From Pseudomonadota bacterium (GTDB taxonomy: Bacteria; Pseudomonadota; Alphaproteobacteria; Acetobacterales; Acetobacteraceae), in assembly GCA_021780935.1 (NCBI GenBank), contig JAJXXT010000144.1, positions 1 through 64,000 of the forward strand: a stretch of DNA of 64,000 nt, written 5' to 3'. This document shows, in pieces, positions 28,715-48,038 of the stretch (its first letter is position 1; each line of letters begins with the position of its first letter). The notes beneath the pieces were generated by a model. The model searched no databases, was not told the DNA's origin, and saw nothing but the letters and a program-made list of their open reading frames with translations. Made by a program: the position numbers and the translations under genes.

Positions 28715-28734
28715 ATATTTTAGACTTGAAGGAA
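28715..28734. promoter_or_regulatory. Putative MarR operator, site 1
   Basis: ATATTTTAGACTTGAAGGAA. Read on the other strand it shares TTCAAGTCTAAA with site 2 (41571-41590) and the frame TTCAA-N2-CTAAAATAT with site 3 (48019-48038). The left arm (ATATTTTAG) is complete; the right arm is imperfect (AAGGAA instead of AAATAT). It sits between the divergent monooxygenase (start 28690) and SDR-MarR-RidA (start 28790) genes, the usual place for MarR autoregulation, and overlaps the -10 element of the leftward promoter. Confidence 0.7.
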
Positions 28735-28745
28735 CTGGCCCGCAA
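28717..28745 (-). promoter_or_regulatory. Sigma-70-like promoter for the monooxygenase-reductase unit
   Basis: On the minus strand TTGCGG (complement of 28740-28745) is separated by exactly 17 bp from TAAAAT (complement of 28717-28722). The spacing is ideal and the -10 matches TATAAT at five of six bases. The ATG at 28690 follows 26 bp after the -10. The operator of site 1 covers the -10, consistent with repression by a bound MarR protein. Confidence 0.5.
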
Positions 28746-28789
28746 TGTTGGGATCGACTATCGAGCCATCGGGGAGGAAAGGAGGCGCG

Positions 28790-29554
28790 GTGACGCTCAA
28801 GGGACGACAGACCGCAGTGAGGCATGCTCTGGTGACCGGCGGAGGCCAGGGAATCGGTGCCGCGGTGGCGCGTGCGCTGACCGGCGCGAGCGTGCGCGTG
28901 ACCGTGCTCGGCCGCCGTGCCGAGACGCTTGCGGCGATCGTCGCCGCGGGGCAGGCTCAGGCGCATGTCGTGGCGGACGTGACCGACGCGGCGGCGCTGG
29001 AGGCGACACTCGCGGCGCTGCCACCGGTGGATATCCTGGTCAACAATGCCGGGGCGGCGGAATCGGCACCCTTCGCGCGCACCACCCGCGAGATCTGGGA
29101 CCGGATGCTGGCGGTCAACCTTACCGCCGCTTTCACTGCGACCCATGCGCTGCTGCCCGGCATGCTGTTGCGCGGCTGGGGCCGCGTCGTCACCATTGCC
29201 TCCACGGCCGGGCTCACCGGCTACCCGTATGTCAGCGCCTATGTCGCGGCCAAGCACGGTGCCATCGGGCTCACCCGCGCGCTGGCGCTGGAAACCGCGG
29301 GCAAGGGCGTTACGGTCAATGCCGTCTGCCCCGGCTATACGGAAACCGACCTCGTGCAATCCAGCATCGAGCGCATCGCCGCGCGCGGCGGGCGCGATGC
29401 CGAGTCGGTCCGCGCCGATTTCACCCGCGCCAACCCCCAGGGCCGTCTGGTGCAGCCCGATGAGGTCGCCGCCGCCGTGCTGTATCTCTGCGGCCCCGGC
29501 TCGGACGCCATCACCGGCGTCGCGCTGCCCGTTGCCGGCGGAGAAGTGATGTGA
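28790..29554 (+). CDS. Short-chain dehydrogenase/reductase
   Basis: A 254-residue classical SDR. ALVTGGGQGIGAAVA is the NAD(P)-binding TGxxxGxG motif near residue 10, NNAG follows at the usual place, and YVAAKHGAIGL carries the catalytic Tyr-x3-Lys. I chose GTG 28790 because AAAGGAGG (28778-28785) lies four bases upstream; an ATG at 28745 lacks a ribosome site and adds a non-conserved tail. The SDR stop overlaps the MarR start (GTGA). It probably oxidises or reduces an alicyclic intermediate formed by the bifunctional monooxygenase-reductase. Confidence 0.87.
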   Translation: MTLKGRQTAVRHALVTGGGQGIGAAVARALTGASVRVTVLGRRAETLAAIVAAGQAQAHVVADVTDAAALEATLAALPPVDILVNNAGAAESAPFARTTREIWDRMLAVNLTAAFTATHALLPGMLLRGWGRVVTIASTAGLTGYPYVSAYVAAKHGAIGLTRALALETAGKGVTVNAVCPGYTETDLVQSSIERIAARGGRDAESVRADFTRANPQGRLVQPDEVAAAVLYLCGPGSDAITGVALPVAGGEVM

Positions 29555-46906: not shown

Positions 46907-47957
46907 GCAGTACGCCGTTGATGAACGCCGGCAGCTCCTGCTCGTAGTTGACGAAGCTGATCGTCGTTCCCGCGAACCCCGCCTCGGCGAGCCGGATCAT
47001 CTCCTCGGCGATGTGGCGTGGCGTGCCCACCACGGGATAGGTCCCGGCACCGCCGGCGAAGCGCTTGCGATGCAGCCGGTAGGCCTCGGCGTCGTGCGAG
47101 CCGGAGAATTTCTCCTTCGCCCCCATGTAGTGGTCAACACTCGCCGCATCTTCCATCTCGACCGCGTAATGTTCGTAATAAGCCTCGGCCTCTGCCTGGG
47201 TCGGCCGGCACACGACATGGCACGTGGCCAGCACGCCCACCTCGCGCCCGGCCTGTTCCGCCCGGCCCCTGATATCGGCAATCTGCTCGCGCCCCTTCGG
47301 GATATCGACGAAGCTGGTCAGCAGGCAGTCGGCCGCCCGCGCCGCGAAGTCCCGCCCCGGCGGCGAGAACGCGGCATTGACCGTGAGCGGCCGCGGCTGC
47401 TGCACCGGTAGCGGTTTTCCCGAGACATTTTTCAGCTGATAGAATTTGCCGGCGAAATCGAATGTCTCACCGGCATGGATGCGCGAGACGATGTCGAACC
47501 ATTCATGCCCCTGCGCATAGCGGTCCTCGATCATCGGCAGGCCGAACATGCCGAACTCCTCTGGGTTCCAGCCGCAGACGATGTTGAGCCCGGCCCGCCC
47601 GCGCGACTGGTGGTCGATCGTCGCCATCGCCTTGGCCGCAAACACCGGGTGCACCATCGGCACATGCACGGTCGAGAACAGCGTGATGCGCTCGGTGACG
47701 GCGGCAAGCCCGGCGGCGAAGGTCAGCGTCTCGTAGCTCAGCTCGCGCGAGTTCATCTCGCCGCCGAAACCCTTCCACCGGGCGATCGGCAGGAAGAAGT
47801 CGAGCCCCGCCTGGTCGGCCATCCGCGCCACGCGCACGATCCCGTCCCACGCCGCGGGCCAGCGCTCGGGCACGCGCGTCAGCGTCAGCCCGCCATCGGC
47901 GTTGGCGGAAAACACGCCGATCTTGAAGCGGTTGGCGTTCCATGATGGGTGATGCAT
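46872..47957 (-). CDS. LLM class flavin-dependent monooxygenase (luciferase-like)
   Basis: A 361-residue TIM-barrel flavin enzyme resembling RutA/alkanesulfonate monooxygenases, with GLDFFLPIARWKGFGG, ITLFSTVHVPMVHPVFAAK and SRGRAGLNIVCGWNPEEFGM. It uses reduced FMN from a separate reductase and O2. The flavin reductase at 25620-26261 is a candidate donor. Operator site 3 lies 62 bp upstream of ATG 47957, linking it to the aromatic regulon. Its role (ring oxidation, sulfonate or nitrogen release) is unknown. Confidence 0.88.
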   Translation of the reverse strand: MHHPSWNANRFKIGVFSANADGGLTLTRVPERWPAAWDGIVRVARMADQAGLDFFLPIARWKGFGGEMNSRELSYETLTFAAGLAAVTERITLFSTVHVPMVHPVFAAKAMATIDHQSRGRAGLNIVCGWNPEEFGMFGLPMIEDRYAQGHEWFDIVSRIHAGETFDFAGKFYQLKNVSGKPLPVQQPRPLTVNAAFSPPGRDFAARAADCLLTSFVDIPKGREQIADIRGRAEQAGREVGVLATCHVVCRPTQAEAEAYYEHYAVEMEDAASVDHYMGAKEKFSGSHDAEAYRLHRKRFAGGAGTYPVVGTPRHIAEEMIRLAEAGFAGTTISFVNYEQELPAFINGVLPILREAGWRAA

Positions 47958-48018
47958 ACGCGCGCTCCCGAGGATGCTGGCCTCTCATGCCGGCGCCCGA
48001 CTTTCGCACCGACGGCAG

Positions 48019-48038
48019 ATATTTCAACCCTAAAATAT
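48019..48038. promoter_or_regulatory. Putative MarR operator, site 3
   Basis: ATATTTCAACCCTAAAATAT is the most symmetrical of the three sites (ATATTT ... AAATAT arms). It lies in the gap between the luciferase-like gene (start 47957) and the end of the OsmC gene (48077). On the minus strand it contains TTGAAA, which can act as a -35 toward the luciferase-like gene, though the -10 is weak. Sites 2 and 3 agree at 16 of 20 positions. Confidence 0.65.

What the first reader, a model, noticed from the sequence alone, without database searches (positions are those of the whole stretch)
28715..48038. Three near-identical palindromes mark a MarR-controlled 20-gene regulon
Seen in sequence: ATATTTTAGACTTGAAGGAA (28715), ATATTTCAAGTCTAAACTAT (41571) and ATATTTCAACCCTAAAATAT (48019). 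Sites 1 and 2 share TTCAAGTCTAAA exactly; site 3 keeps TTCAA-N2-CTAAA with perfect outer arms. AT-rich 20-mers of this kind are rare in DNA at about 70% G+C, and all three fall only in the promoter gaps of the aromatic locus. Together they cover five transcription units (monooxygenase-flavin reductase-MFS; SDR-MarR-RidA; the nine-gene IorA unit; the ABC importer; the luciferase-like gene). The single MarR protein encoded at 29551-30051 is the obvious ligand. Known: MarR dimers bind such palindromes. Inferred: that this protein binds these sites.
Basis: partly seen in the sequence, partly recalled or inferred. Interest (0 to 1): 0.82.

Follow-up and report, generated by a model that had tools for sequence, protein, structure and literature searches.

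The report
Anthranilate-type MarR operators at auxin-degradation genes
Three matching DNA boxes look like docking sites for a switch protein that in related bacteria sits beside anthranilate-breakdown genes, and one of them lies on genes for degrading the plant hormone auxin, which suggests those genes are switched by their end product rather than by auxin.

Summary
The three sites are real and beyond chance. Related genomes identify them: a consensus made from the window's own sites recurs in 76 of 80 loci encoding a relative of this MarR, mostly outside genes, typically before a flavoprotein gene (named salicylyl-CoA 5-hydroxylase, probably 2-aminobenzoyl-CoA, i.e. anthranilate, monooxygenase), its SDR and a CoA ligase. 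The same box precedes tryptophan dioxygenase in 9 of 16 genomes that have it, and two TRAP operons; kynureninase lies near the MarR in Aminobacter. So the core regulon looks like anthranilate breakdown and its feeders. The window's nine-gene unit is an iad-type auxin operon. In four relatives the box stands before IorA, as here; none of the four has a detectable auxin-sensing IadR gene, though G001's unit lacks the oxygenase genes. The MarR lacks IadR's IAA contacts. Best reading: an anthranilate-pathway repressor has taken over the auxin operon. Against: sites 2 and 3 also resemble boxes beside an IadR gene in Azospirillum; the window's own genome is not held; genome-wide enrichment is modest. 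Site 3 and its luciferase-like gene are not supported by 7 relatives. Binding, ligand and expression are untested.

The parts
28715..28734 (-). operator site 1, shared divergent promoter gap of the AbmG-like unit and the SDR-MarR-RidA unit
   Evidence: same gap carries the box in relatives
41571..41590 (+). operator site 2, shared divergent gap of the iad (IorA) unit and the Opp-type ABC importer
   Evidence: box before IorA in L001 (16/20), L120 (18), L122 (17 and 16), L126 (16)
48019..48038 (+). site 3, upstream of the luciferase-like gene; best match to the consensus but not conserved in relatives
   Evidence: against:
29551..30051 (+). MarR regulator (166 aa), anthranilate-operon-linked subfamily
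   Evidence: Pfam MarR; tree; model pLDDT 81 and MarR fold
28790..29554 (+). SDR oxidoreductase (ORF tool start 28745; likely start GTG 28790, by eye)
30044..30472 (+). RidA-family protein
26336..28690 (-). AbmG-like flavoprotein, 2-aminobenzoyl-CoA or salicylyl-CoA monooxygenase/reductase
   Evidence: FAD_binding_3 + OYE domains; NF006101 1095 bits against cut-off 1078
25620..26261 (-). flavin reductase-like protein
24372..25604 (-). MFS transporter
39277..41430 (-). IorA-like (indolepyruvate ferredoxin oxidoreductase alpha), first gene of the iad unit; start by eye
37751..39259 (-). IorB-like
36438..37760 (-). IadD orthologue (Rieske oxygenase large subunit; start uncertain)
   Evidence: 553 bits to 9O71 = V. 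paradoxus IadDE
35959..36513 (-). IadE-like (Rieske oxygenase small subunit; start uncertain)
34355..35962 (-). IadF-like AMP-forming CoA ligase
33198..34532 (-). IadG-like thiolase (start uncertain)
31981..33228 (-). ChsH2-type OB domain fused to SDR (IadH-like by position)
31192..31971 (-). cyclase/kynurenine-formamidase-like (IadI-like)
30474..31427 (-). SDR (IadJ-like by position; start uncertain)
41644..43158 (+). ABC importer solute-binding protein (SBP_bac_5)
43216..44220 (+). ABC permease
44217..45053 (+). ABC permease
44357..46906 (+). ABC ATPase with two ABC domains (true start lies downstream of the ORF start)
46872..47957 (-). luciferase-like monooxygenase

Best explanation
The MarR protein at 29551-30051 is the repressor of an anthranilate (2-aminobenzoyl-CoA) breakdown regulon shared by many Alphaproteobacteria. 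Its dimer sits on a palindrome of consensus WTATTTYAR-NN-YTRAAATAW close to the start codons, keeps the genes off, and lets go when an intermediate of the anthranilate pathway (anthranilate or 2-aminobenzoyl-CoA) builds up. In this lineage the same operator lies in the promoter gap of the iad-type auxin-degradation operon and its neighbouring ABC importer, while the auxin-sensing repressor IadR of other iad loci appears to be missing. IAA degradation, whose known end product is anthranilate, would therefore be switched on together with, and by, anthranilate breakdown (product induction). Shown by computation: the sites, their recurrence, the gene families, no detectable IadR in six relatives. 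Inferred: binding, repression, ligand, induction, and that the window's own genome lacks IadR.
For: Box at 16 or more of 20 in 76 of 80 MarR-bearing loci, 150 sites, against a mean of 11.5 sites for 200 shuffled palindromes; the top shuffles are near-copies of the motif. 17 or more of 20: 107 sites against 0 in reversed sequence. 113 of 150 site centres lie outside coding-like ORFs although such ORFs cover 80% of the sequence; 32 of the other 37 are within 250 bp of an ORF's first possible start. 45 lie between AbmG-like and SDR genes, where the site holds 1.42 bits per column against 0.28 and 0.38 in the flanks, 25 non-redundant loci (inflated, since sites were picked by score). AbmG-like gene in 66 of 80 loci. 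Box before IorA in L001, L120, L122, L126 and before an iadD gene in G034 (L124). No IadR-like gene at E 1e-12 with two different IadR queries in G001, G002, G003, G011, G016, G034; 7 and 9 of the same 16 genomes do match. Box of 17 or more of 20 upstream of tryptophan dioxygenase in 9 of 16 genomes, reversed 0; 6 of 13 leaving out three genomes seen before. Box before TRAP operons in 2 genomes. Gene annotated kynU 4.8 kb from the MarR in Aminobacter. IAA contacts S28/H32/R46 of MarR_73 align with E39/R43/D58; D in 20 of 20 rows of A1. iad ends at anthranilate (PMC12633357 section 5; PMC9613470 passage).
Against: No binding, expression or ligand data. The window's genome is not held, so an IadR elsewhere in it is not excluded; relatives are partly MAGs of untold completeness. 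Sites 2 and 3 score 13 and 14 of 16 on the box beside the IadR gene of Azospirillum thermophilum (ATATTTGA-N4-TCAAATAT), L126's and L122's iad sites 13 and 14, while 80 abm loci have 3 such hits in all; the Azospirillum boxes score 17 and 16 of 20 on my consensus, and a 16 of 20 box stands between IorA and IadR in G384. So the two kinds of box are not cleanly told apart. Whole-genome enrichment is modest: 38 sites against 2 reversed in 13 MarR genomes (about 75 Mb), but 19 against 7 in 16 genomes of 3 Mb or more without this MarR (about 69 Mb), and 25 against 17 in 9 drawn genomes that have a relative. G001, the closest genome, has no IadD gene; its unit shows only IorA, IorB and the cyclase, its abm and IorA sites reach only 16 of 20, and its one near-consensus site lies elsewhere. 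Site 3 not conserved. A TRAP orthologue in G434 has no site of 15 or more; 7 of 16 tryptophan dioxygenase loci have none of 17 or more. NCBI names the key enzyme salicylyl-CoA hydroxylase, so salicylate is possible. CouR's CoA-contacting Arg pair has no obvious match (my alignment reasoning).
Confidence: 0.63

Rival explanations
1. The iad promoter is controlled by an auxin-sensing IadR encoded elsewhere in the genome; site 2 belongs to it, and only site 1 belongs to the local MarR.
For: IadR binds upstream of the first iad gene in Variovorax (PMC9613470 section 7); in Azospirillum thermophilum an IadR-type MarR lies beside a joined iad-abm cluster with related ATATTT-armed boxes, and window sites 2 and 3 score 13 and 14 of 16 on that box.
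Against: Sites 1 and 2 share 12 central bases; no IadR-like gene in six relatives with two queries; a box scoring 16 to 18 of 20 stands before IorA in four relatives without a detectable IadR.
Confidence: 0.18
2. The MarR senses IAA or another early auxin intermediate although its pocket differs, so the regulon is auxin-induced after all.
Against: 66 of 80 loci carry it with an AbmG-like gene and only 2 of 80 with an IadD-like gene; IadD-type gene in 11 of 49 of these genomes; the carboxylate-binding Arg46 is Asp in 20 of 20.
Confidence: 0.13
3. The boxes are only AT-rich promoter or terminator pieces and bind no common regulator.
For: Site 3 overlaps a terminator-like T tail; site 1 is weakly palindromic.
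Against: 0 matches in 100 shuffles; recurrence beside the MarR far above shuffled palindromes and reversed sequence; no sigma-70-like pair in the three gaps.
Confidence: 0.05

Closest known systems
IadR (MarR_73) and the Variovorax iad locus
   Same: MarR-family protein controlling an iad-type IAA degradation operon from a site upstream of its first gene (PMC9613470)
   Different: The window MarR is of another subfamily, lacks the IAA-contact residues, and its box also stands at an anthranilate-CoA-type operon
IadR2 (MarR_50, MarR_Bj2)
   Same: Second MarR of iad loci that does not bind IAA; neither ligand nor DNA site reported (PMC9613470 section 7)
   Different: Sequences of MarR_50 and MarR_Bj2 were not available here. 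The MarR next to IadR in B. niftali (best PDB relative 3BOQ) is 31% identical to the window MarR; another B. niftali MarR, beside an AbmG-like gene, is 45% identical. Either could be IadR2, and both nest in the same wide group in the tree
CouR (p-coumaroyl-CoA-responsive MarR)
   Same: Repressor of an aromatic CoA pathway; one inverted repeat serving divergent promoters (PMC4737184 passages)
   Different: Different operator; not among the PDB sequence hits; the Arg36/Arg38 pair has no clear match
Aerobic 2-aminobenzoyl-CoA (abm) pathway of Azoarcus
   Same: Large two-domain FAD plus OYE flavoprotein with CoA ligase (recalled, not from a call)
   Different: The regulator recalled for that operon is not a MarR; not checked here

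Membership tests
MarR family regulator | MarR winged-helix domain | tested here: met
MarR family regulator | binds a palindromic operator near the genes it controls | not testable with these tools
   Palindrome conservation only:
IadR (auxin-sensing iad repressor) | belongs to the IadR sequence group | tested here: not met
   Tree: window MarR in a 37-row group (100/98) without the 7KFO and 7KYM rows, but the tool warns of long branches; 28.6% identity to the 7KFO fragment and no hit to 7KYM at 1e-3. 3CDH was not compared by sequence
IadR (auxin-sensing iad repressor) | IAA carboxylate contacts Ser28, His32, Arg46 | tested here: not met
   E39, R43, D58 in the window protein, (7KYM itself keeps only Arg46)
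IadR2 | clusters with MarR_50 and MarR_Bj2 | tested here: inconclusive
   Reference sequences not obtainable (no supplement look-ups allowed); neighbours compared
iad auxin-degradation locus | IadDE Rieske oxygenase | tested here: met
   IadD 553 bits to 9O71, next other enzyme 156 bits; 9O71 is V. paradoxus IadDE
iad auxin-degradation locus | IadF ligase, IadG thiolase, IadH/IadJ dehydrogenases, IadI amidase | tested here: met
   Domain families present in one unit; by family and order only, activity not tested
iad auxin-degradation locus | IadC reductase in the operon | tested here: not met
   No reductase among the nine genes scanned; a ferredoxin and ferredoxin reductase lie at 50199-51790
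2-aminobenzoyl-CoA monooxygenase/reductase | FAD hydroxylase plus OYE domains in one chain | tested here: met
2-aminobenzoyl-CoA monooxygenase/reductase | acts on 2-aminobenzoyl-CoA rather than salicylyl-CoA | not testable with these tools
   Context only: kynureninase, tryptophan dioxygenase, iad

The most novel reading that the evidence does not exclude
In this alphaproteobacterial lineage the auxin-degradation operon has lost its auxin-sensing repressor and been rewired to a trans-acting anthranilate-node repressor, so that a bacterium destroys a plant hormone as a by-product of anthranilate sensing. The same MarR subfamily joins tryptophan/kynurenine, auxin and anthranilate breakdown into one regulon in many Alphaproteobacteria, and its operator may be the missing DNA site of part of the IadR2 group.
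Probability: 0.37. Interest if true: 0.65.

Novelty: new variant of a known kind. Interest (0 to 1): 0.5.

Why it matters
The iad papers seen here tie auxin removal to auxin sensing by IadR and leave the second MarR without ligand or DNA site. An operator and regulator pair found in dozens of genomes gives a testable regulon for anthranilate, tryptophan and auxin breakdown in soil and plant-associated Alphaproteobacteria, and predicts strains that degrade auxin without sensing it.

Tried and rejected
Whole-genome matrix scan of the window's own organism: not possible. IadR-type operator: a scan for ATATTTGA-N4-TCAAATAT, suggested by Azospirillum thermophilum, reached 14 or more of 16 only in that locus among 11 IadR loci, so no general IadR operator could be defined; but window site 3 and L122 also reach 14, and site 2 and L126 reach 13. 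Luciferase-like gene as conserved member: not supported in 7 relatives; G033 has a 16 of 20 box about 0.8 kb upstream. CouR-type CoA occlusion: not supported by alignment, left open. Structure comparison gave generic MarR folds.

Literature (listings only unless said; open-access library): operator letters, no paper; MarR + 2-aminobenzoyl-CoA + anthranilate, 1 paper, not opened; MarR + salicylyl-CoA 5-hydroxylase, 0; 'iadR2', 17, of which PMC9613470 was read in part, the rest not opened; 2-aminobenzoyl-CoA monooxygenase, 5, not opened; CoA thioester terms, 362 papers, 15 listed, of which PMC4737184 was seen in passages; kynurenine-anthranilate-MarR-regulon-Bradyrhizobium, 14, 12 listed; anthraniloyl-CoA regulator, 2; IAA + 2-aminobenzoyl-CoA + MarR + operon, 1, PMC9613470. 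No listing showed a paper on this regulon.

Of the 38 sites in 13 genomes, nine I could not link to related genes: G001 C126, G002 C152, G014 C9:356702, G016 C36, G030 C34 (before a Peripla_BP_6 binding protein), G038 C17 and C21, G041 C4 and C11. My count of 25 'in neighbourhoods' is generous: same contig and up to about 26 kb from an iadD gene.
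Full report
Observation. The core TTYAANNCTAAA occurs exactly three times in the window and never in 100 shuffles. They are good evidence of one shared element, although site 1 on its own is hardly a palindrome and site 3 overlaps a terminator-like T tail.

Gene content. Domain searches show, left to right: MFS, flavin reductase and a 784-aa FAD/OYE flavoprotein on the minus strand; SDR, MarR, RidA on the plus strand; a nine-gene minus-strand unit; an Opp-type ABC importer; a luciferase-like gene. 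The nine-gene unit is an iad-type auxin-degradation operon: its Rieske large subunit matches V. paradoxus IadD (9O71) with 553 bits, far above the next enzyme at 156 bits, and ligase, thiolase, SDRs and a formamidase-like gene follow, as in the pathway described by PMC12633357 (sections 5 and 6 read). An IadC-type reductase is not in the unit.

Footprint. A consensus from the window's own sites, ATATTTYARNNYTRAAATAT, scores 16 or more of 20 in 76 of 80 loci with 150 sites; 200 shuffled palindromes average 11.5 sites. The four loci without a site are L005, L044, L053 and L067; L005 and L067 start close upstream of the MarR. 113 of 150 site centres lie outside coding-like ORFs, which cover 80% of the sequence, and 32 of the other 37 are within 250 bp of the ORF's first possible start codon. 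By neighbour, 45 lie between AbmG-like and SDR genes, 26 before AbmG, 20 before a ligase, 18 before the SDR, 17 have no window-related neighbour, 2 are inside window-related genes. Site columns carry 1.4 to 1.5 bits, flanks 0.3 to 0.8; part of this difference comes from choosing sites by score. The majority sequence of the 150 sites is WTATTTTAAGCTTAAAATAW; the window's version differs at several positions.

What the regulon is. 66 of 80 loci carry the AbmG-like flavoprotein gene, usually with SDR, RidA and a distantly related CoA ligase; 6 carry IorA and 2 an IadD-like gene. Pattern search of 13 relatives' whole genomes found 38 sites against 2 in the reversed control. By my tally over, 25 of the 38 are in abm-MarR or iad neighbourhoods. 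Of the others, two precede orthologous TRAP transporter operons in G002 and G016 and two precede an alpha/beta hydrolase plus tryptophan 2,3-dioxygenase in G024 and G038. Testing the tryptophan link on 31 genomes, 16 had the enzyme and 9 of these have a box of 17 or more of 20 upstream within 1.5 kb, reversed control 0; leaving out G024, G038 and G030, which had been seen before, 6 of 13. In some of these genomes the gene lies near the MarR locus, so the cases are not all independent. In Aminobacter niigataensis a gene annotated kynU lies 4.8 kb from the MarR and 'salicylyl-CoA 5-hydroxylase' genes; boxes there reach only 16 of 20. Tryptophan, kynurenine and auxin breakdown can all feed anthranilate, so anthranilate or its CoA ester is the natural signal. 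This step is inference.

Auxin operon rewired. In G001, G002, G003 and G016 a box lies before IorA as site 2 does (L001 16 of 20; L120 18; L122 17 and 16; L126 16); in G002 and G016 the iad operon and the MarR are on different contigs. G001's unit shows only IorA, IorB and the cyclase, and no IadD gene was found in that genome. In G034 a 17 of 20 box stands before iadD. Searches of 16 whole genomes with a Bradyrhizobium and a Variovorax IadR found nothing at 1e-12 in G001, G002, G003, G011, G016 and G034; some of the weaker matches elsewhere may be other MarR proteins. In iad loci of G024, G038, G041, G114 and G384 an IadR-like gene is adjacent. In the tree the window MarR falls in a 37-row group without the IadR rows; the IadR2 candidates and 3BOQ fall inside the same wide group, and the tool warns of long branches. 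Residues that hold IAA in MarR_73 are replaced (contacts from PMC9613470 section 7).

A result that cuts the other way. One plasmid, of Azospirillum thermophilum, has only an IadR-type MarR beside joined iad and abm genes, with boxes ATGTTTGAGGGGTGAAATAT and ATATTTGAATTGTCAAACAT. These score 17 and 16 on my consensus, and window sites 2 and 3 score 13 and 14 of 16 on that box. Boxes of the two regulator kinds therefore share their ATATTT arms, and sequence alone does not prove that site 2 belongs to the local MarR.

Limits. Genome-wide specificity is moderate: 16 control genomes of at least 3 Mb without this MarR hold 19 sites against 7 reversed, and 9 drawn genomes with a relative hold 25 against 17. 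The 3 Mb limit was set after seeing the counts, because small AT-rich genomes give dozens of hits both ways. Whether this subfamily includes the published IadR2 proteins could not be settled. Papers: PMC9613470 sections 7 and 8 and passages; PMC12633357 outline, sections 5 and 6 and passages; PMC11630574, PMC10374108 and PMC4737184 passages only.

Verdict. Site 1 is very probably, and site 2 probably, an operator of the local MarR. The regulon is better described as anthranilate-centred with a captured auxin operon than as a general aromatic locus. It is a new variant of a known kind.

Noticed in passing
50199-51790: Ferredoxin reductase (minus) and Rieske-type ferredoxin (plus) lie back to back; they may supply electrons to the IadDE-like oxygenase, since the operon has no IadC. 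No operator-like site between them.
   Followed up: partly
48896-50159: CsoR/RcnR-type metal-sensing repressor followed by a cation-efflux transporter.
   Followed up: no
19258-24365: Lhr-type helicase, a weak metallo-beta-lactamase-fold match and an ATP-dependent DNA ligase: looks like an Lhr-ligase DNA repair cluster (name recalled).
   Followed up: no
51815-53946: Two ORFs in tandem beside the aromatic locus; the first is an amidohydrolase by Pfam, the second was not scanned.
   Followed up: partly
L175 (Azospirillum thermophilum plasmid) 6333-22379: iad and abm genes joined in one run with an IadR-type MarR; a near-perfect palindrome ATATTTGAATTGTCAAACAT stands before the AbmG-like gene.
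   Followed up: partly
L121:4441 and L127:7319: Operator-like boxes before orthologous TRAP transporter operons followed by an ABC ATPase gene with a TOBE domain, an unusual mixture.
   Followed up: partly
L145:4784 and L146:4678: Operator-like boxes before an alpha/beta hydrolase and tryptophan 2,3-dioxygenase in two Bradyrhizobium genomes.
   Followed up: yes
31981-33228: ChsH2-type OB/zinc-ribbon domain and an SDR in one ORF; the ORF has full-length-like relatives in other iad loci.
   Followed up: no
L001 10992-15700: In the closest relative the IorA unit lacks the oxygenase, ligase and thiolase genes; a real loss or an assembly fault of the MAG.
   Followed up: no
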